Source: Phycisphaerae bacterium
GTDB lineage: Bacteria > Planctomycetota > Phycisphaerae > UBA1845 > UTPLA1
Direction: 5' to 3'
DNA length: 64,000 nt
Assembly (NCBI GenBank): GCA_023150615.1
Contig: JAKLKO010000014.1
Coordinates: 1 to 64,000, forward strand
Shown: positions 50,093 through 58,186 of the stretch, one piece after another
Position numbering within the stretch: position 1 is the stretch's first letter
Layout: each line of letters opens with the position of its first letter
Translations under genes and position numbers: made by a program
The notes under the pieces: generated by a model
What the model was told of the DNA's origin: nothing
The model's database searches: none
The model's input: the letters and a program-made list of their open reading frames with translations, nothing else

Positions 50093-50722
50093 TCAGCCGT
50101 TCCCGAACCCCGGGTCTTCGTTGGGAGGATTGGGATCGGCCGGCGGAATGGTCTGGGTGCACGAACCGAGCGTTACACAGGAATAGCCGTACCCGCAATG
50201 GGTCACCACCGTTCTTGGGTCGGGATGAGGATAGCATCGATCGATGAATTCGCAGTGCGTCAGACAGGTCTCGCCCCCCGCCGCGACTAGAATGCAGGCG
50301 ATGCAGCCGGGACAGCCTGGGCCGCCAGCGAGACATGCACCGCATGCGGTACCGCATGCAATGTCGCCCAAAATACATGCCACGAAATGGGAATAGTTGT
50401 AGTCCGTCAAGCATGGCCGCGTGAACCCGACCGGGCCGTACATTTCAGCACACTCGTCGCCGCCTCCCTCCGCGAGCGTTGCGCCCTGACACCAGTCCCA
50501 CTCCCAGTGTTCTAGTTGCGACGGACATCCTTGCAGTTCTTCAAAGCACTCGCATGGAATGTCCATCCGGGCTACGTCACACTTCACACACGGTGTCCCG
50601 GGCACGACCCGAGGATCCTGCGTGGGGCACTCATCCACCGCCCGAGCATCGTCGGTACGCGTCACGGCGCAAGCGATTACGGCAATCGCGATCGACAGAA
50701 AGCACGCTACCACGCGCTGCAC
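50093..50722 (-). CDS. Secreted Cys-rich protein, second gene of cassette A
   Basis: This 209-residue protein starts at GTG 50722, with GGAG a few bases upstream. A signal peptide (LSIAIAVIACAVTRTDDARA) is followed by a mature chain holding more than 20 Cys, many in CxxC and CxC spacing (CGTACGACLAGGPGCPGC, CLTHCEFIDRC). The pattern suggests multiple disulfides. The central hydrophobic Cys block is reminiscent of small secreted peptides, but I recognise no family. It ends in a Pro/Asn-rich tail. Confidence 0.5.
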   Translation of the reverse strand: MQRVVACFLSIAIAVIACAVTRTDDARAVDECPTQDPRVVPGTPCVKCDVARMDIPCECFEELQGCPSQLEHWEWDWCQGATLAEGGGDECAEMYGPVGFTRPCLTDYNYSHFVACILGDIACGTACGACLAGGPGCPGCIACILVAAGGETCLTHCEFIDRCYPHPDPRTVVTHCGYGYSCVTLGSCTQTIPPADPNPPNEDPGFGNG

Positions 50723-50807: not shown

Positions 50808-51539
50808 CTATTGCTGTTCGTCGGCCAGCACGACCTCGGAATACCGGACGCGGGCGCAATGACTGCACGTACACCCCCTGTCGTCGCAGCGGCAGCGGCA
50901 GTAGTATCCCGGCGGACACGTGGTTGATGCCCGGCAATCGCCGCCCGGTGGCCCGGCGTACTCACACTCGCAGCGAGTGTTCTCCTCGGAGGTTGATGAA
51001 ACTGCCGCACCACCCGACTGCACCTTCTCGGTGTCCAACGCGGCCGAGAAATCGAAAGTGGCATCAAACTGCTGCTTCGCGCCCTCGACCCGCAGTTGCA
51101 GCAGCCCGGTATCCTGGTCGTAATCGATCTTCGTGTAGCCGGGGATGTCGAAGATGACGCTCTGTCGCGCGGCGTCCGACTCGGTCATCGGGGCAAATCG
51201 ATGGATCAGACCACTCGACACCTGTTCTCGCGTGAACCGGACGACGGCGTCCTCCTCGACAAGCGACAGGCCGATCGTATTGAGCTTGAAGGCGGTGATC
51301 TCATCATGACCGGTCTCGATCATGACCAGGCCATCCGGGCCGATCCAGACCGTGCCGAGGCCGTCGAACGGCAGTTCGACGGAGGGAACGACCGCCTCGC
51401 CGCCGGGGATCGGGCGCGGAGAGGATGGTTCCTCTGCCTGCAAGGCGGTCGGCCCCGCCGATCCCAGCCAGAATGCGGCCACCATTGCGACGGCGATGAA
51501 AACGACCGCAACGCGCATCACCCCGACGGACCGTTCCAT
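50808..51539 (-). CDS. Secreted protein with Cys-rich C-terminus, first gene of cassette A
   Basis: This 243-residue protein starts at ATG 51539, 7 bases after AAGGAG. A signal peptide (VAVVFIAVAMVAAFWLGSAG) precedes a beta-rich body (residues 35-165). The tail has eleven Cys in a short span (CECEYAGPPGGDCRASTTC, CRCRCDDRGCTCSHC). The first four codons (Met-Glu-Arg-Ser) and the whole upstream region lie in the 360-bp repeat shared with cassette B. The function is unknown. Confidence 0.6.
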   Translation of the reverse strand: MERSVGVMRVAVVFIAVAMVAAFWLGSAGPTALQAEEPSSPRPIPGGEAVVPSVELPFDGLGTVWIGPDGLVMIETGHDEITAFKLNTIGLSLVEEDAVVRFTREQVSSGLIHRFAPMTESDAARQSVIFDIPGYTKIDYDQDTGLLQLRVEGAKQQFDATFDFSAALDTEKVQSGGAAVSSTSEENTRCECEYAGPPGGDCRASTTCPPGYYCRCRCDDRGCTCSHCARVRYSEVVLADEQQ

Positions 51540-51887
51540 TGTCAGCTCCTTCAGTTCACACCGCTCCGCCCACCCTTTTAGGTTTTGTTGCCTGTAATCG
51601 GGCCGTCGGTAAGGCGTCGGAGATTCATAAGCTGATTCTGAACAGTATGTTATGAAATTTTTTTTCCTCCGTGATCGTTCACTTAATTCGCCGGCTTTTT
51701 CTGCGAATGCTGGATAATGCCTTCTCCGATTCGCGGGCTCGAACGTAGCCCTGCCACGCCTCGGTCCTGCTCACGGCGGAACGCGAACAACCGATCATGC
51801 GCGCGATCCTTTCAACTGTGATTGAATAGTCGTTCATGCCTGCGGCCGCGTGCACGACCTGGAAAACGCGACCCTCAATCCCTTTGG
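51528..51887. repeat. 360-bp direct repeat, copy A
   Basis: The sequence matches 54791-55150 over its full length with 12 substitutions and no insertion or deletion (about 97% identity by eye). It spans the last about 69 codons of the tandem-HTH gene, the AT-rich spacer, the ribosome site and the first four codons of the secreted gene. Confidence 0.9.
51540..51678 (-). promoter_or_regulatory. AT-rich control region of cassette A
   Basis: This 139-base spacer carries a run AAAAAAAATTT just 3' of the regulator stop, which could act as an UP element. A short frame MNLRRLTDGPITGNKT (16 codons) follows, preserved in copy B with one residue changed. AAGGAG ends the spacer. A clear -35/-10 pair is not obvious. 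Confidence 0.4.
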
Positions 51888-52182
51888 TCCCTCGCCGAAC
51901 AACTTTCGTGTGGCGCCGCCGAGCAACTCCTGTGGCCCGCGCCCGGCGCGGCGACGCCAGAAAGCGCGATCTGTCTCGAAGATAGACCTTCCATGCGAGG
52001 GTCCTCGCGACTCCGCCGACCGAACCGTGACAAAGTCGCGCAATCTCGCGAATCGATCGCCCGAGGTCGCCGCTCGCCCGCAGCTTGGAGATGACCATCC
52101 AAGCCCGCCCCTCCAGCGTCAACGTCCGCAGTTGCTGAAATGGCCTGCCGCGTGAGTTTCTCATATAGCAAGCGCCGATCAA
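51679..52182 (-). CDS. Tandem-HTH DNA-binding protein, putative regulator of cassette A
   Basis: The 167-residue Arg/Lys-rich protein holds two similar helix-turn-helix units. HTH1 covers about residues 43-70 (SIREIARLCHGSVGGVARTL then AWKVYLRDR). HTH2 covers about 121-150 (ITVERIARMIGCSRSAVSRT then EAWQGYVRAR). The endings AWKVYLRDR and AWQGYVRAR show internal duplication. It lies upstream of cassette A in the same direction. The start is unclear: TTG 52182 or ATG 52164. A strong GGAGGTG near 52210 would instead fit another frame, so a frameshift at the 5' end is possible. HTH2 is duplicated at 54942-55150. Confidence 0.55.
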   Translation of the reverse strand: MIGACYMRNSRGRPFQQLRTLTLEGRAWMVISKLRASGDLGRSIREIARLCHGSVGGVARTLAWKVYLRDRSRFLASPRRARATGVARRRHTKVVRRGTKGIEGRVFQVVHAAAGMNDYSITVERIARMIGCSRSAVSRTEAWQGYVRARESEKALSSIRRKSRRIK

Positions 52183-52233
52183 TCTGGAGATGATTCAGTG
52201 CAAACACCTCCATCCCCTTGGAAACCTGTTTTC

Positions 52234-52261
52234 AGCGTAGTCCCCCCCTGAGACGTGTCAA
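52234..52261 (-). promoter_or_regulatory. Promoter of the tandem-HTH gene
   Basis: On the minus strand, TTGACA (52261-52256) is a perfect -35. TACGCT (52239-52234) lies 16 bases downstream. Transcription would start near 52227, about 45 bases before the gene. Confidence 0.5.
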
Positions 52262-52282
52262 GCGGTTATTCGCAGTATCTCA

Positions 52283-52303
52283 AAGTGACATAGGTTGTCA
52301 CTT
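52283..52303. promoter_or_regulatory. Inverted repeat operator candidate upstream of the HTH promoter
   Basis: AAGTGACA and TGTCACTT arms flank TAGGT, a perfect 8-bp inverted repeat. Another GTGAC half-site lies at 52305-52309. The repeat sits about 20 bases upstream of the -35 box, a good place for autoregulation by a dimeric or tandem HTH protein. Confidence 0.45.
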
Positions 52304-52374
52304 CGTGACGCACCAGGTCGGAAACGGAACAATCGTCGATCCCAACCTGTTTGAGCCGAATTCTCGCGCGGCCT

Positions 52375-52656
52375 CTATCGGCCGGCCACGAGCTTGTCGT
52401 AGATACCTTCGTTGAACCCTACGATCAGCGTCCTGCCGCGCCGGATCGTCGGGGCGCGGAGGTTGCCCGTCGGCCCCAGCATCACCGCAAGCAGCTCGGC
52501 GTCACCCGGCCGGTCCTTTGACATGTCGAAGCGCACGACGTTCTTGCCCCGTGCGGCGATGACGACGTCGGCAGCGCGGGCGAGGCGACGGCGAAGATCA
52601 TTGAGGAGCAGTCGGACATCCGGGCGTTCCTCGTCCGCGTGCTGGGCGTGGATGAC
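52375..52656 (-). pseudogene. C-terminal remnant of an ArsC-family (arsenate-reductase-like) protein
   Basis: The open stretch ends at TAG 52375 and encodes about 90 residues. Its last part reads MSKDRPGDAELLAVMLGPTG, then NLRAPTIRRGRTLIVGFNEG, the characteristic C-terminal half of ArsC/Spx-like thioredoxin-fold proteins. The N-terminal half with the active-site Cys is missing: the frame is interrupted by TGA at 52657-52659 and no start is available. The flanking sequence belongs to other genes. Interpretation: a truncated gene left by rearrangement. Confidence 0.6.
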
Positions 52657-52706
52657 TCAAGGCTGCGGGTGTAGCCGCTGCAAGGTCGCCGCGGCGAGGT
52701 TCGGCT

Positions 52707-53399
52707 TCAGGGGCTGGCTGCCGGCTGCGTCGTCGGTGACGCGGCGCTCGGTGCCTGATCCGCCTCGCGGAGACGTGCGGCGAGGGCGTTCGCGCGGCGA
52801 ATCAGCGCTTGGGCTGCGAGTTGCGAGAATCGGTCGACTTGTTCGTCCGAGCCGCTGTTTGCGGCGGCCACGGCACGAAGGCACCGGATGAACTGTTCCG
52901 CGTCGGCGAGCCGGCGCGCGTCAATGGCGGCGTTGGCGCGGCGCTCCAACTCCCGGGACAGCGCGTTGATCGCGTCGCCGCGCTTCCAGATTCGCGGCAG
53001 GCGCCGGTTGCGCTCATCCTGCGTCATGGCCACCGCGTCCCGCTCGGTCCAGCGCGAGATCCGCAGCGTCCCGGCGGGCGACGCGGATTGAACGAGTTGC
53101 ATCAACCCGCGGATCGCGCCGTCGGCGTCGCCGGCCAGCCACCGGTCCACGACCTGGTCGATCGGCATCGCGTCGCCTTCTTCGACGGGCGCGGTCGATG
53201 CCGCGGCAACGGACGGCCCCTCACGGACTGCGGTTTCCGCCGGCGGCGAGTTGCAGGAGCAAGCGGTGCCCAGGCAGCATGCCAACACCAGCAGTCCATG
53301 TGTTTGAAGTGGGCGGAGCCGACTCCGACCATCTCGGACCGCACGACCCAATGCCGAGGGCCACAAGGCTCTGTACCAAGTTGCGTTCAGCGCCGCCAT
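52707..53399 (-). CDS. Putative lipoprotein, third gene of cassette B
   Basis: This 230-residue protein is read from ATG 53399. After about 38 residues comes a hydrophobic stretch LLVLACCLGTACSC, with lipobox-like Cys residues, so the true start may be later. Residues about 80-210 are mostly helical with many Ala/Arg (WTERDAVAMTQDERNRRLPR). The end is a Pro/Ala/Ser/Thr tail. It follows the LolA-like gene at 53419 in the same direction. No family is recognised. Confidence 0.5.
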   Translation of the reverse strand: MAALNATWYRALWPSALGRAVRDGRSRLRPLQTHGLLVLACCLGTACSCNSPPAETAVREGPSVAAASTAPVEEGDAMPIDQVVDRWLAGDADGAIRGLMQLVQSASPAGTLRISRWTERDAVAMTQDERNRRLPRIWKRGDAINALSRELERRANAAIDARRLADAEQFIRCLRAVAAANSGSDEQVDRFSQLAAQALIRRANALAARLREADQAPSAASPTTQPAASP

Positions 53400-53418
53400 C
53401 CTTTGTTGACAAGGCGGG

Positions 53419-54414
53419 CTAGGGCTGCGCCTGAGACACAAATGTCTGGTTTAAGTCATCCCAAACGCGAACCGCCTTCGTCGGGTTGATTTGAAACGTC
53501 GAGACTTGGGTTTCAGGATTGACGGAGATTGCGTTGACTTCAATGACAACTTCGACGCCCGGCGTTTGATCCGGGAGATAGCCGAAGAGCACAATGGACT
53601 GCGGAAAAACAAGAGAAGAGCTCGCCGGTCCCCAAGTCTTATACCCCGAGAAATCCGCTGAACTGAGCAACCGACCATCGGACCCGACGCGTTCGATACG
53701 GCAGGGGCGCAGTTCACTGGCGGGACTCACATAGACGCGGAATACGTAAGCTTGGCCGTGGCACACGCCGCCCGGAAAGTCCGCATACCTGCACGAAACC
53801 GGGGCGTCAGAGTGCGTTTGAGGCGCGTTGGTCCAGGTAACGTTCCAGAACGACTCAGGAACAGAGTCTGCCCGAACGTCCGTGAGGCGAATCTGGACGC
53901 CGTAGTTCGCGTCGGTGACGGGATATCGGAATTGCAGAAACTCGAAGATCGGATTCGGCACTCCCGGCAGAATGGCCGGGCTGTCGGTTGGCGAGACCGA
54001 AAGCGTGCCATCGCTCAGGAGGAGTTGGTATTTTTCCCCATCGTACGCAACATCGCTGTTCAGACCGGGTAGTCGCAGCGGGTCGGTGCATGAAACGTAC
54101 CGATATCGCGAACCCGCAGCCCAGTAGGACACTTGGCCGAGCACGGGCTGTCCCTTGGCTTGTTGGAGTTCGGCCGGATCATCGGGGGACGCGTGGTGAA
54201 TAAGGACGGCCGTCGAGGCGGTGAGCTCAACGCCGATCAGGGCCTGAAACTGGGAAAAGAGGGCGCGCAGCGCGATGGACTCCGCAGGGAGATCGATCGC
54301 GCGTCCCGTTGTCGCTCCCAACAAGATGAGCAGGACAAAGGTCGCGACAGCAGCAACGGCACGCCGCTGCGGTGGGCGGCTTGAAACGTCATTTCTGCAT
54401 GTGCCTCGAACCAT
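53419..54414 (-). CDS. Secreted protein with LolA-like beta fold, second gene of cassette B
   Basis: This 331-residue protein starts at ATG 54414, 8 bases after AGGAGGT. The N-terminus is Arg-rich then hydrophobic (VAAVATFVLLILLGATTGRA), a signal peptide. The body is a long set of strands such as QVSYWAAGSRYRYVSC and YDGEKYQLLLSDGTLSV that fits the lipoprotein-sorting/LolA-like fold, with a second part near the C-terminus (GVEVVIEVNAISVNPETQV). It parallels the cassette A gene at 48896-50023. Confidence 0.6.
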   Translation of the reverse strand: MVRGTCRNDVSSRPPQRRAVAAVATFVLLILLGATTGRAIDLPAESIALRALFSQFQALIGVELTASTAVLIHHASPDDPAELQQAKGQPVLGQVSYWAAGSRYRYVSCTDPLRLPGLNSDVAYDGEKYQLLLSDGTLSVSPTDSPAILPGVPNPIFEFLQFRYPVTDANYGVQIRLTDVRADSVPESFWNVTWTNAPQTHSDAPVSCRYADFPGGVCHGQAYVFRVYVSPASELRPCRIERVGSDGRLLSSADFSGYKTWGPASSSLVFPQSIVLFGYLPDQTPGVEVVIEVNAISVNPETQVSTFQINPTKAVRVWDDLNQTFVSQAQP

Positions 54415-54451
54415 TGTTGAAACCTCCTATCCAAGCCGAACGCCGCTTCGA

Positions 54452-54802
54452 CTAGCAGAATTCGGTCATGAGGGGTGGCCCACATGGGACCCACAGGACG
54501 AAAAGAAAGCGCTTCGCGCCACAGTTACTGGAAACGGTCCCGTGGTCTCCTGGTCTACTCACGTCTACGGCGGGCAACGCGGTGGGTGCCGGGATGCACC
54601 CAGGCGCGATACAAGGGATCGCGACGCCGCAGCGCAACGTGCCAGGTCGGATATAATAGAAATGAAACTCATGGATCGGCGTCTGTGCCTCGACCGCGCC
54701 ATCAGCAACGGCCAGAAGGCATAGCAGGAGAATGCCCATCGCTCCTGTCCTGCAACTGATTCGCCTGGCGGGAAGCGATGAGCGCCGATTGGACCGTTCC
54801 AT
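54452..54802 (-). CDS. Small secreted protein, first gene of cassette B
   Basis: This 116-residue protein starts at ATG 54802 with the same AAGGAG and first four residues (Met-Glu-Arg-Ser) as the cassette A gene, because its start lies inside the 360-bp repeat. Beyond that point the sequence is unrelated. A signal peptide (GILLLCLLAVADGAVEA) is followed by a short mature chain with seven Cys (RCGVAIPCIAPGC, FVLWVPCGPP). The function is unknown. Confidence 0.5.
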   Translation of the reverse strand: MERSNRRSSLPARRISCRTGAMGILLLCLLAVADGAVEAQTPIHEFHFYYIRPGTLRCGVAIPCIAPGCIPAPTALPAVDVSRPGDHGTVSSNCGAKRFLFVLWVPCGPPLMTEFC

Positions 54803-55150
54803 TGTCAGCTCCTTCAGTTCACAGCGTTCCACCCGCCCTTTTAGGTTTTGTTGCCTGTAATCGGGCCGTCGGCAAGGCGTCGGAGATTCATAAGCTGATT
54901 CTGAACAGTATGTTATGAATTTTTTTTTCCTCCGTGATCGTTCACTTAATTCGCCGGCTTTTTCTGCGAATGCTGGATAATGCCTTCTCCGATTCGCGGG
55001 CGCGAATGTAGCCCTGCCACGCCTCGGTCCTGCTCACGGCGGAACGCGAACAACCGATCATGTGCGCGATCCTTTCGGCTGTAATTGAATAGTCGTTCAT
55101 GCCTGCGGCCGCGTGCACGACCTGGAAAACGCGACCCTCAATCCCTTTGG
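54791..55150. repeat. 360-bp direct repeat, copy B
   Basis: This copy of 51528-51887 differs at 12 positions, several of them silent in the HTH frame. Homology stops abruptly at 55150, inside the regulator gene, where unrelated plus-strand sequence begins. Confidence 0.9.
54942..55150 (-). pseudogene. Truncated copy of the tandem-HTH gene (HTH2 only)
   Basis: The frame is intact from 55150 to the stop at 54942 and encodes HTH2 (ITAERIAHMIGCSRSAVSRT) with a few substitutions, but the first HTH and the start are missing. It may be a dead fragment, or could be read from a start inside the repeat (the Met in AAAGMNDYSI). Confidence 0.65.
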
Positions 55151-55369: not shown

Positions 55370-56128
55370 ATGGGCGTGGATCGGCGATATCGCAAACCCC
55401 CCGTGGTTGAGGCGCTTTGCGAGATGTACTTCGAGGGGTCGGAATGGGACGACACGCTCATTGGGCAGTTTTATGAGCGCGTCAAGGCCCAGTTTCCGCA
55501 AAAGCGGCAACGGGAAATCCAGGAGGCCCAGGTGCGATTTTCGTCGGCCGGCGAGGCAGCCGCAGGCGTGCGCCGGTTGCCCCCACGCATGCAGTTCGTG
55601 ACCGAAGCGGGCGACCGGATGATCCAGCTTGGCCCTGACCTACTGGTCGTGAACCAGCTCAGGCCTTACGCTTCGTTCGAGGAATGGGAAAAGACGCTGC
55701 ATGATGCGCTGGACACCTATCGGGAGCTCGCGCATCCGAAGGGTCTCGCTCGCCTCGGTGTACGATACATCGACCGGGTGATCGTCCGGCAGCCGACGGT
55801 TCGGATGGAGGATTACTTCGCTCTTTACCCCGAGATTCCGCCAGCTGTCGGAACCAGCCACGGGGCTTTCGTGCTACGGGTAGAGTTTCCCGAGCGGCGA
55901 CCCGGGCACAGGTTGCTGGTTACGTTCGGATCGGCGCCGCCTGAAGGACCGGGCACAATGGCGTTCCTACTGGACTATTACGACGTGTGCGAGCCCGGGG
56001 GCGCGACCACGGCGGAAGCCGTGCGGCCGATCGTCCGAACGGCCCACGAGAATGTAATCGAGGCGTTTGAGGCCAGTATCACCGATCAACTACGCTCGCT
56101 GTTCGAACCAGAGGAGAAGCAGTCATGA
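55370..56128 (+). CDS. TIGR04255 family protein
   Basis: This 252-residue protein has the features of the sporadically distributed TIGR04255 family: a start YRKPPVVEALCEMYFEG, the middle FEEWEKTLHDALDTYREL then RLGVRYIDRVIV, and the C-terminal LLDYYDVCEPGG with AHENVIEAFEASITDQLRSL. The biochemical role is unknown, but the family is frequent in accessory and defence regions. CGAGG lies about 9 bases before the ATG. Its stop overlaps the next start (ATGA). Confidence 0.8.
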   Translation: MGVDRRYRKPPVVEALCEMYFEGSEWDDTLIGQFYERVKAQFPQKRQREIQEAQVRFSSAGEAAAGVRRLPPRMQFVTEAGDRMIQLGPDLLVVNQLRPYASFEEWEKTLHDALDTYRELAHPKGLARLGVRYIDRVIVRQPTVRMEDYFALYPEIPPAVGTSHGAFVLRVEFPERRPGHRLLVTFGSAPPEGPGTMAFLLDYYDVCEPGGATTAEAVRPIVRTAHENVIEAFEASITDQLRSLFEPEEKQS

Positions 56129-56379
56129 CCGCGGTAACGGCAAGAGAACTGAACGCCCCCTATCAGTACGTTGTCGTCGAACAAGCGGTGAGCGACGTAG
56201 CTCGCCTGCTCGTGGAGGAGGAGCAGGAAGAGCTGGTCGTTTCCGACTGGTATCGGCGCGTGCGGCCCGGCCCGCACCGGAGCATTCTTGAGCTTGAGGG
56301 GCTGGGGGCCGAAATCTGGGTGGGCGTGGACGCGAGGCAATACGTCGACGAGTTGAGAGATGAATGGAACCATCACTGA
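56125..56379 (+). CDS. Small protein between TIGR04255 and PIN genes, possible antitoxin
   Basis: This 84-residue protein overlaps the upstream gene by 4 bases and the downstream gene by 20. It is acidic (DVARLLVEEEQEELVVSDWY), with no clear DNA-binding motif. A small partner directly before a PIN toxin is often an antitoxin; that is inferred from position only. Confidence 0.5.
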   Translation: MTAVTARELNAPYQYVVVEQAVSDVARLLVEEEQEELVVSDWYRRVRPGPHRSILELEGLGAEIWVGVDARQYVDELRDEWNHH

Positions 56380-56845
56380 TCGTCTGCGCGACGCGCATAG
56401 AGTCCATTTCGACTCGATGACGCTGATCTACCTGATCGAGCGGCACCCATCCTTCGGGCCTCTCGTTCGCGAGGCCTTCGCTCTCGTCGACGCCGGTCGT
56501 TGCGTCGGGCTGTCGTCGTTCGTGACGCTGCTGGAGGTTCTTGTGAAGCCGTTCCAAGACGGACGGGCCGACTTGGCCCAGCGGTATCGGGACGTGCTGA
56601 TTGGTTCGCGCGGCTTCTCGCTCTTTCCGCTTGATCGCAGGATTGCAGAGGATGGCGCAGGCATCCGCGCGCGGTACGGATTCCGTACGCCCGATGCAAT
56701 CCAGCTCGCAACGGCAGTGAGGCACAGCGCGGACGCATTCCTTACCAACGACATAAGACTGAAGAAGTTCCATCAGCTCGATGTTGTTGTGCTCGATGAC
56801 TTCAGCCCCTCGGCGCCCGTGCCGGAGACGGAGGGCGACGCATGA
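56360..56845 (+). CDS. PIN-domain ribonuclease, VapC-like
   Basis: This 161-residue protein has the PIN acidic set: Asp in VHFDSMTLIYLIE (near residue 18), a Glu in TLLEVLVKP, Asp in TPDAIQLATA and Asp in TNDIRLKKF. The fold length and order fit VapC-type RNase toxins. It overlaps the small upstream gene and its stop overlaps the DUF499 start (ATGA), so all four were one operon. Confidence 0.8.
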   Translation: MNGTITDRLRDAHRVHFDSMTLIYLIERHPSFGPLVREAFALVDAGRCVGLSSFVTLLEVLVKPFQDGRADLAQRYRDVLIGSRGFSLFPLDRRIAEDGAGIRARYGFRTPDAIQLATAVRHSADAFLTNDIRLKKFHQLDVVVLDDFSPSAPVPETEGDA

Positions 56846-57215
56846 CCGACGCACGCATCAAACCCTGGATCGAGATCGTCACGCTGCACGCCGACCTGCT
56901 GTCCGAGGAGTTCTCGGAGGACATCTTCGCGCTGGACCTCGGGCCTCCGGCCGACGGCAAGCCGAGCGTCCCGGCCGTGTACCGCGACCCGGAGCACTTC
57001 TTCCGGGCGTCGTAGCTGACGAGCGGGTTGAAGTCGCTGCTCAAGGACGTGCTGGCCCGTATTTAGGGCGCCGCCGGCGCCCGCATGCTGAAGCTCATTA
57101 CGCCATTCGGCGGCGGCAAATCGCAGACGCTGGCCGGGTTGTTTCATGCAGCCAACCGGCGGAGGCCCCGGACGTCGTCCCGGAGGGCAAGGACCTACCG
57201 CGGCCGCCATCAACC
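56842..57215 (+). pseudogene. Broken DUF499 ATPase (anti-phage-associated type), with two in-frame TAG codons
   Basis: Translation from ATG 56842 gives KPWIEIVTLHADLLSEEF then YRDPEHFFRAS, the start of DUF499 proteins. TAG follows at 57013 where a Tyr codon is expected. The same frame continues (LTSGLKSLLKDVLARI) to a second TAG at 57064 and then to ITPFGGGKSQTLAGLFHAAN, an intact Walker A. A change of frame there leads to EAPDVVPEGKDLPRPPS. Homology then stops near 57215. The rest of the roughly 1000-residue protein is missing. The gene is best read as decayed. Confidence 0.65.
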
Positions 57216-57224
57216 GTCCCGGCG

Positions 57225-58186
57225 AGGATGGGATGTGGGACGAGGCGGATGGATTCTACTATGACGTGTTACGACTGCCGAACGGACACGCGCAGCGATT
57301 GAAGGTCCGTTCCATGGTGGGACTGTTGCCGCTGTGCGCCGCGACGGTGATCGAACCCTGGCAACGGGAATTGGTCGCGGAGTCGGTCTCCAGCATGCAG
57401 GAACGTACGCGGCAGATGCCGGACCTGTTCCGGCATATTCACCCGACCGGGCCGGGCCATCTCGGGACAGGGGATCGCGGCATCATCGCGTTGCTCAATC
57501 CGGAGCGACTTCGCCGCATCCTCGCCCGCATGCTCGACGAGCAGGAGTTTCTCAGTCCGTACGGCATCCGGTCCGTCTCGAAATTCCACGAACAGCATCC
57601 CTACGTACTGTACGTTGATGGACAGGAACATCGCGTCGATTACACCCCCGCCGAATCGACGACCGGTACGTTCGGCGGCAACTCCAACTGGCGCGGCCCC
57701 GTCTGGTTCCCGGTGAACGCGATGATCATCCGCGCGCTGCTCAACTACTTCCTCTATTACGGCGACAACTTCCGCGTCGAGTGCCCGACCGGCTCCGGCC
57801 GGCTGATGAACCTCTTCGAAGTCGCGAAGGAGATCGGCGACCGGCTGACGCGGATCTTCCTGCAAGGCGCGGACGGTCGCCGGCCGGTCTTCGGCGGAGC
57901 TGAGAAATTCCAGTCCGATCCGCAATGGCGCGACCATCTTCTCTTCTACGAGTACTTCCACGGCGACAACGGCGCCGGGATCGGCGCCAGCCATCAGACC
58001 GGCTGGACCGGCCTGGTCGCCAAGCTCATCCAACTGTTCGGGACCCTTGATGCGGAGCGGGCGCTGGAGCGAGGAAAGCGCGCCGCCTTCGATCAACGCG
58101 GGGCGCGCGGTGCTCCCGGTCGCGACGAGACTCCGATTTCGCGGCCGACGCCATCACCGACGCCGAAAACAACGAAGCGTCGATAA
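57225..58186 (+). pseudogene. C-terminal part of a GH63/MGH1-like glucosidase, 5' truncated
   Basis: The frame starts inside a conserved glycosidase module (MWDEADGFYYDVLRLPNG). It continues with GNSNWRGPVWFPVNAMIIRA, YGDNFRVECPTGSGRLMNLF and HGDNGAGIGASHQTGWTGLV, as in the last third of large bacterial glucosidases of the MGH1-like group. About 320 of an expected 850-900 residues remain. The first catalytic part is lost at the island junction near 57220. An ATG at 57146 opens the same frame but reads through unrelated sequence first. Confidence 0.75.

What the first reader, a model, noticed from the sequence alone, without database searches (positions are those of the whole stretch)
51528..55150. 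Two secreted-protein cassettes, each preceded by a duplicated regulator/promoter module
Seen in sequence: a 360-bp direct repeat (51528-51887 and 54791-55150; 12 substitutions, no indels) carries the second HTH of a tandem-HTH gene, an AT-rich spacer and the start of a secreted gene. Beyond the first four codons the downstream genes differ completely between copies. Both cassettes then run on, in the same strand, through exported or lipidated proteins including a LolA-like one. Inference: a mobile-like or recombining module that places different secreted cargo behind one regulatory start, comparable to cassette switching.
Basis: partly seen in the sequence, partly recalled or inferred. Interest (0 to 1): 0.72.

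Follow-up and report, generated by a model that had tools for sequence, protein, structure and literature searches.

The report
Shuffled secreted-protein cassettes behind one leader
In a bacterium related to Phycisphaerae (Planctomycetes), the same short stretch of DNA (end of a regulator gene, promoter region and gene start) occurs three times, each time in front of a different set of exported proteins, which suggests that gene sets for envelope proteins are swapped in and out of a fixed slot by recombination.

Summary
The 360-bp repeat is real: 12 substitutions, no indels, all genes on the minus strand. A third copy, C, lies on another contig of the same genome (C69). There it stands in an intact frame: nuoG – seleno-arsC – [HTH remnant] – leader – cargo C – POP. 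The window holds a permuted second version of that frame: leader – cargo B – POP 3' fragment, joined by a microhomology junction to arsC 3' fragment – intact tandem-HTH gene – leader – cargo A. The frame DNA shared with C69 is 91-98% identical. Cargo B and cargo C are the same three-gene operon (Cys-rich exported peptide, LolA-fold protein, lipoprotein), but only 31-36% identical in the two larger proteins. Cargo B groups with another genus, and a B+C pairing is rejected (AU p=0.03). Cargo A is unrelated. Best explanation: recombination in shared frame DNA exchanged cargo and inserted a frame-plus-cargo unit at the A leader, pushing cargo A downstream, as in T6SS/Rhs module displacement. No recombinase or mobile-element link was found. 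A regulated 'switch' is not shown: only copy A keeps the regulator. Assembly error at the 360-bp repeats is not excluded.

The parts
51528..51887 (-). Repeat copy A: 3' part of HTH gene, spacer, SD, ATG and first four codons of cargo A
54791..55150 (-). Repeat copy B: same module in front of cargo B; HTH gene truncated at 55150
51679..52182 (-). Intact tandem-HTH regulator gene (167 aa as listed from TTG; an in-frame ATG follows near 52164); the only intact copy in the genome
   Evidence: two homologous halves
52274..52301 (-). Promoter-like site upstream of the HTH gene, overlapping GTCAC/GTGAC dyads (consensus match only)
   Evidence: sequence
52205..52587 (-). 3' fragment of the ArsC-family selenoprotein gene (without its Sec codon) plus the arsC-HTH intergenic region; 98% identical to C69
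52574..52587 (.). Junction POP 3' fragment | arsC 3' fragment; short imperfect homology (about 12/14), no long shared sequence
52574..52674 (+). 3' fragment of a prolyl-oligopeptidase (POP) gene whose intact copy is on C69
50808..51539 (-). Cargo A gene 1: exported protein, 243 aa, Cys-rich C-terminus; homologs in G012 (three), G009, G002
50093..50722 (-). Cargo A gene 2: exported Cys-rich protein, 209 aa; paralog on C23
48896..50065 (-). Cargo A gene 3: 389 aa, putative lipoprotein, weak LolA_like Pfam match (below cut-off); paralog on C23
54452..54802 (-). Cargo B gene 1: Cys-rich exported peptide, start ATG supplied by the leader
53419..54414 (-). Cargo B gene 2: LolA-fold exported protein, 331 aa
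52707..53441 (-). Cargo B gene 3: predicted lipoprotein, 244 aa
51624..51656 (.). Dyad TTCATAA-N19-TTATGAA in the spacer of copy A: candidate operator (inference)
   Evidence: its conservation is not significant, p=0.17
54887..54919 (.). The same dyad in copy B; also in copy C at C69:68413-68445

Best explanation
An inherited frame (arsC 3' end, tandem-HTH gene, spacer with promoter, SD and start codon on one side; POP 3' end on the other) has had its cargo, a set of envelope or exported protein genes, replaced and re-inserted by recombination. SHOWN: the frame occurs three times in the genome, with cargo A, B and C. B and C are anciently diverged versions of one three-gene operon inside nearly identical frames. 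The window unit is a permuted copy of the C69 frame joined POP 3' to arsC 3'. INFERRED: a unit [leader - cargo B - POP3'/arsC3' - HTH] from a C69-type locus, circular or in tandem, recombined into an older [leader - cargo A] at the 360-bp leader. This left the 360-bp direct repeats at both ends and pushed cargo A downstream. INFERRED, weaker: each cargo is expressed from its own copied leader, possibly with the one intact HTH protein acting on all three.
For: Three copies in the own genome, none in 60 relatives. Frame DNA blocks: 52205-52587 98%, 52574-52750 94%, 54733-55037 92%, 51528-51774 91% against C69. Junction 52574-52587. Cargo B/C proteins: LolA-fold 36%, lipoprotein 31-32%, peptide 41% including the shared leader. 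Cargo tree: B with G002 (another genus), support 94-98; B+C as sisters rejected, AU p=0.031. Three-gene cassette recurs without the HTH frame in G002, G061 (two loci), G037 and G098, with the peptide not seen in the last two. nuoG-arsC synteny also in G010, so C69 is the native place. Within the repeat, the last ~50 bp before the start codon group B with C, while the upstream part groups A with B, as expected of a crossover in the leader; numbers are small.
Against: No second strain was available to show an unoccupied site or a swap in progress. No recombinase. Fragments of arsC and POP and broken HTH genes also fit neutral duplication debris. Contigs come from a draft genome (70 contigs), and no reads were available. 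Only 7 cargo sequences and a handful of leader-proximal variable sites carry the phylogenetic and mosaic tests.
Confidence: 0.6

Rival explanations
1. Neutral segmental duplication: a piece of the C69 locus was copied by microhomology-mediated repair into the window, partly decayed, and happened to land upstream of cargo A. No cargo exchange is selected.
For: Microhomology junction, truncated arsC, POP and HTH genes; 3-bp junction of the HTH deletion in C69.
Against: The leader is fused to the 243-aa gene at its natural start, keeping SD, ATG and frame: its homolog in G012 aligns from residue 1. The cargo inside the copied frame is not that of C69 but belongs to another lineage, which plain copying does not give.
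Confidence: 0.22
2. Assembly artefact: chimaeric joining of strain variants, or a 3.26-kb circle wrongly joined to an unoccupied chromosome (left flank - leader - cargo A) at the 360-bp repeat.
For: Exact matches of 75-89 bp between copies are within reach of short k-mers. The distance between the repeats is exactly 3263 bp, so the alternative path is a closed circle.
Against: 12 substitutions distinguish the copies. The POP/arsC and HTH-deletion junctions have no shared k-mer that could mislead an assembler. The genome is 99.6% complete with 2.0% contamination.
Confidence: 0.13
3. Two ancient complete loci whose flanks were homogenised by gene conversion, while cargo was too diverged to convert.
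For: Would also give similar flanks and old cargo; inference only, no direct support.
Against: The window frame is only fragments of arsC and POP joined to each other, and their intact, syntenic copies are on C69. This points to a recent transfer rather than an old paralogous locus.
Confidence: 0.05

Closest known systems
T6SS effector-immunity module displacement in Vibrio cholerae (PMC5361080)
   Same: A new module arrives with a stretch of the conserved 5' region, replaces or displaces the old one downstream, and leaves fragments; driven by homologous and homology-facilitated recombination.
   Different: Here the conserved 5' part is a regulator end plus promoter and leader, not a secretion-protein domain. 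No toxin-immunity pair or T6SS part is recognised in the cargo.
[quoted passage not shown]
   Same: Constant 5' end, variable downstream cargo, displaced second cargo.
   Different: The constant part codes for only 4 to about 18 residues. Cargo is whole operons of small exported proteins.
Integron gene cassettes
   Same: Different cargo behind one promoter.
   Different: No integrase found among the flanking ORFs; cargo is a multi-gene operon inside homologous frames.
LolA superfamily lipoprotein carriers
   Same: Cargo B gene 2 is predicted to have the LolA/LolB fold (Z 12.8 to LolA3 and 12.6 to LolB of Porphyromonas gingivalis) and stands beside a lipoprotein gene.
   Different: No Pfam or NCBIfam LolA match; patchy operon found in 5 of 114 genomes of the order, so not the housekeeping LolA.

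Membership tests
LolA superfamily (cargo B 331 aa) | LolA/LolB half-barrel fold | tested here: met
   Foldseek E 1e-9 to 3buu; VIA Z 12.8 over 194 residues. Model confidence is low (pLDDT 50, pTM 0.51)
LolA superfamily (cargo B 331 aa) | Sequence match to a LolA family model | tested here: not met
   No Pfam or NCBIfam match; so 'LolA-like fold', not 'LolA'
LolA superfamily (cargo A 389 aa) | Pfam LolA_like above curated cut-off | tested here: not met
   19.1 bits against a cut-off of 30; fold model too poor to judge
Effector-immunity (T6SS/Rhs/CDI) module | Recognisable toxin domain with immunity partner | tested here: not met
   No toxin or immunity family in Pfam, NCBIfam, PADLOC or PHROGs for cargo proteins; unknown toxins remain possible
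Effector-immunity (T6SS/Rhs/CDI) module | Conserved 5' region, exchanged downstream module, displaced older module | tested here: met
   (analogy of mechanism only)
Integron or transposon | Integrase or transposase in or next to the unit | tested here: not met
   None among the ORFs tested between 44.8 and 62 kb
Integron or transposon | attC sites or terminal inverted repeats with target duplication | tested here: inconclusive
   No inverted repeat of 40 bp or more in 48-62 kb; shorter sites and attC not searched
Phase-variable cassette switch | Different arrangements in cells of one strain | not testable with these tools
   Needs reads or isolates

The most novel reading that the evidence does not exclude
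A dedicated cargo-exchange system of this lineage: the tandem-HTH protein controls all three leaders through the TTCATAA dyad, and the 360-bp repeats loop out or reinsert a 3.26-kb circle, so that cells alternate between envelope-protein operons.
Probability: 0.1. Interest if true: 0.75.

Novelty: new variant of a known kind. Interest (0 to 1): 0.42.

Why it matters
It is a clear case of whole secreted-protein operons being exchanged within a fixed regulatory frame in a planctomycete lineage, as known for toxin modules in Proteobacteria. It also defines a three-gene envelope cassette (Cys-rich peptide, LolA-fold protein, lipoprotein) for which no family description was found here. Genes exchanged at such slots are often under selection from neighbours, phages or hosts (general knowledge), so the cassette is a lead for surface competition or recognition in these bacteria.

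Tried and rejected
The 360-bp DNA in 60 relatives: only chance-length matches. HTH in phages, plasmids and viral contigs: nothing. HTH in relatives: one 39% match over 70 aa in G013, beside unrelated genes, and one weak match in G040. The left flank of copy B elsewhere in the genome: no real match. Dyad as a conserved operator: found only in the three modules, but its conservation among A/B/C is not significant (p=0.17). Shared leader between the two cassettes of G061: none, so the frame exchange is not a general property of the cassette. Cargo A 389 aa structure: too poor to use. POP neighbourhoods in seven relatives: no arsC or cassette beside POP. A scan of genome contigs gave two cassette loci only.

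Full report
Observation. The repeat at 51528-51887 and 54791-55150 is exact in extent: 360 bp, 12 substitutions, no indels, identity ending at once at both sides. All features lie on the minus strand. The repeat carries the second half of a tandem-HTH gene (51679-52182), a spacer of 47.5% GC in a 66% GC window, AAGGAG, ATG and four codons. The HTH protein is made of two homologous halves (35% identity over 63 residues), and its closest known domains are HTH and sigma-region-4-like (all below cut-offs).

A third copy. The same genome holds the module again at C69:68294-68541. There the surroundings are nuoG, an ArsC-family selenoprotein gene, a remnant of the HTH gene, the leader, a three-gene operon, then a convergent prolyl oligopeptidase gene (POP), tRNA-Leu and nuoF. 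nuoG followed by arsC also occurs in G010, so this is the native place of arsC.

The window as a mosaic. Window DNA matches C69 in four blocks: leader B 54733-55037 (92%), end of lipoprotein gene plus POP 3' end 52574-52750 (94%), arsC 3' end plus intergenic 52205-52587 (98%), leader A 51528-51774 (91%). The second and third blocks meet at 52574-52587 by a short imperfect homology. In C69 these two blocks lie about 2.4 kb apart in the opposite order. So the window holds a circularly permuted or tandem version of the C69 frame, cut within the leader. This is what integration of a circle, or an unequal crossover, at the leader would leave. In C69 the HTH gene has lost 430 bp between two GTG triplets. 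In copy B the HTH gene is cut at 55150. Only copy A keeps it whole.

The cargo. Cargo B (peptide, 331 aa, 244 aa) and cargo C are the same operon, with protein identities of 41, 36 and 32%, although the frames around them are 91-98% identical DNA. The operon recurs without the HTH frame in G002, twice in G061, and (peptide not seen) in G037 and G098: 5 of 114 genomes of the order, this one included. In trees B joins G002, a different genus, with 94-98 support, and a B+C pairing is rejected (AU p=0.031). The operon was therefore most likely replaced within the frame rather than diverging in place. The 331-aa protein has no Pfam match but its model, of low confidence, finds LolA/LolB structures first (Z 12.8 and 12.6). 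The third gene has lipobox-like starts (read by eye). Cargo A is a different set: a 243-aa exported protein whose homologs stand alone in G012, G009 and G002, followed by a 209/389-aa pair with a paralogous pair on C23. Cargo A thus looks composite too.

Mechanism. Shown: frame sharing, cargo discordance, the POP/arsC junction, truncated HTH copies. Inferred: cargo exchange at a C69-type locus between lineages, then insertion of a frame-plus-cargo-B unit at an older leader-cargo A, pushing A downstream. Within the leader the last ~50 bp before the start group B with C, while upstream A groups with B. That fits a crossover there, but rests on few sites. Less certain: the retained dyad TTCATAA-N19-TTATGAA as operator for the single intact HTH protein; its conservation is not significant.

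Against a mobile element: no recombinase among the ORFs tested nearby and no HTH relatives in phages, plasmids or viral contigs. Against a simple artefact: 12 distinguishing substitutions and junctions without shared k-mers. However, exact stretches of 75-89 bp mean that a read spanning 51.4-55.3 kb is still needed; the alternative graph path would be a 3263-bp circle.

Comparison. The closest described process is displacement of T6SS effector-immunity modules in Vibrio, where a new module with a piece of the conserved 5' region inserts and shifts the old one downstream (PMC5361080), and the Rhs/CDI loci discussed there. It works like these, but is not filed under them: no toxin or immunity family was detected.

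Noticed in passing
L004:7771-8127 (C69:67770-68126): ArsC-family selenoprotein gene with in-frame TGA in HRNGUTSC; NCBIfam NF041106 136 bits against a cut-off of 85. The window keeps only its 3' end, without the Sec codon.
   Followed up: partly
nuoF-nuoG interval in relatives (L070/L086, L078, L079, L084, L004): nuoF and nuoG are adjacent in G007 but split by 2.4 to 8 kb of varied genes in G009, G002 and G012, and convergent with 5.5 kb between them in this genome: a possible insertion hot spot. In G012 the closest homolog of cargo A gene 1 lies in it.
   Followed up: partly
window 55370-56845: TIGR04255 protein (115.7 bits), a small 84-aa ORF and a PIN-domain protein in a row: a probable toxin-antitoxin-like pair beside the repeat.
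   Followed up: no
window 57146-58186: MGH1/GH63-like glycoside hydrolase matching only the C-terminal part of the profile, probably truncated.
   Followed up: no
L102 and L103 (G061, two contigs): A second genome with two divergent copies of the peptide/LolA-fold/lipoprotein cassette, without shared flanking DNA.
   Followed up: partly
L062:7594-9226 (C23): Paralogous pair of cargo A genes 2 and 3 without the leader module.
   Followed up: no
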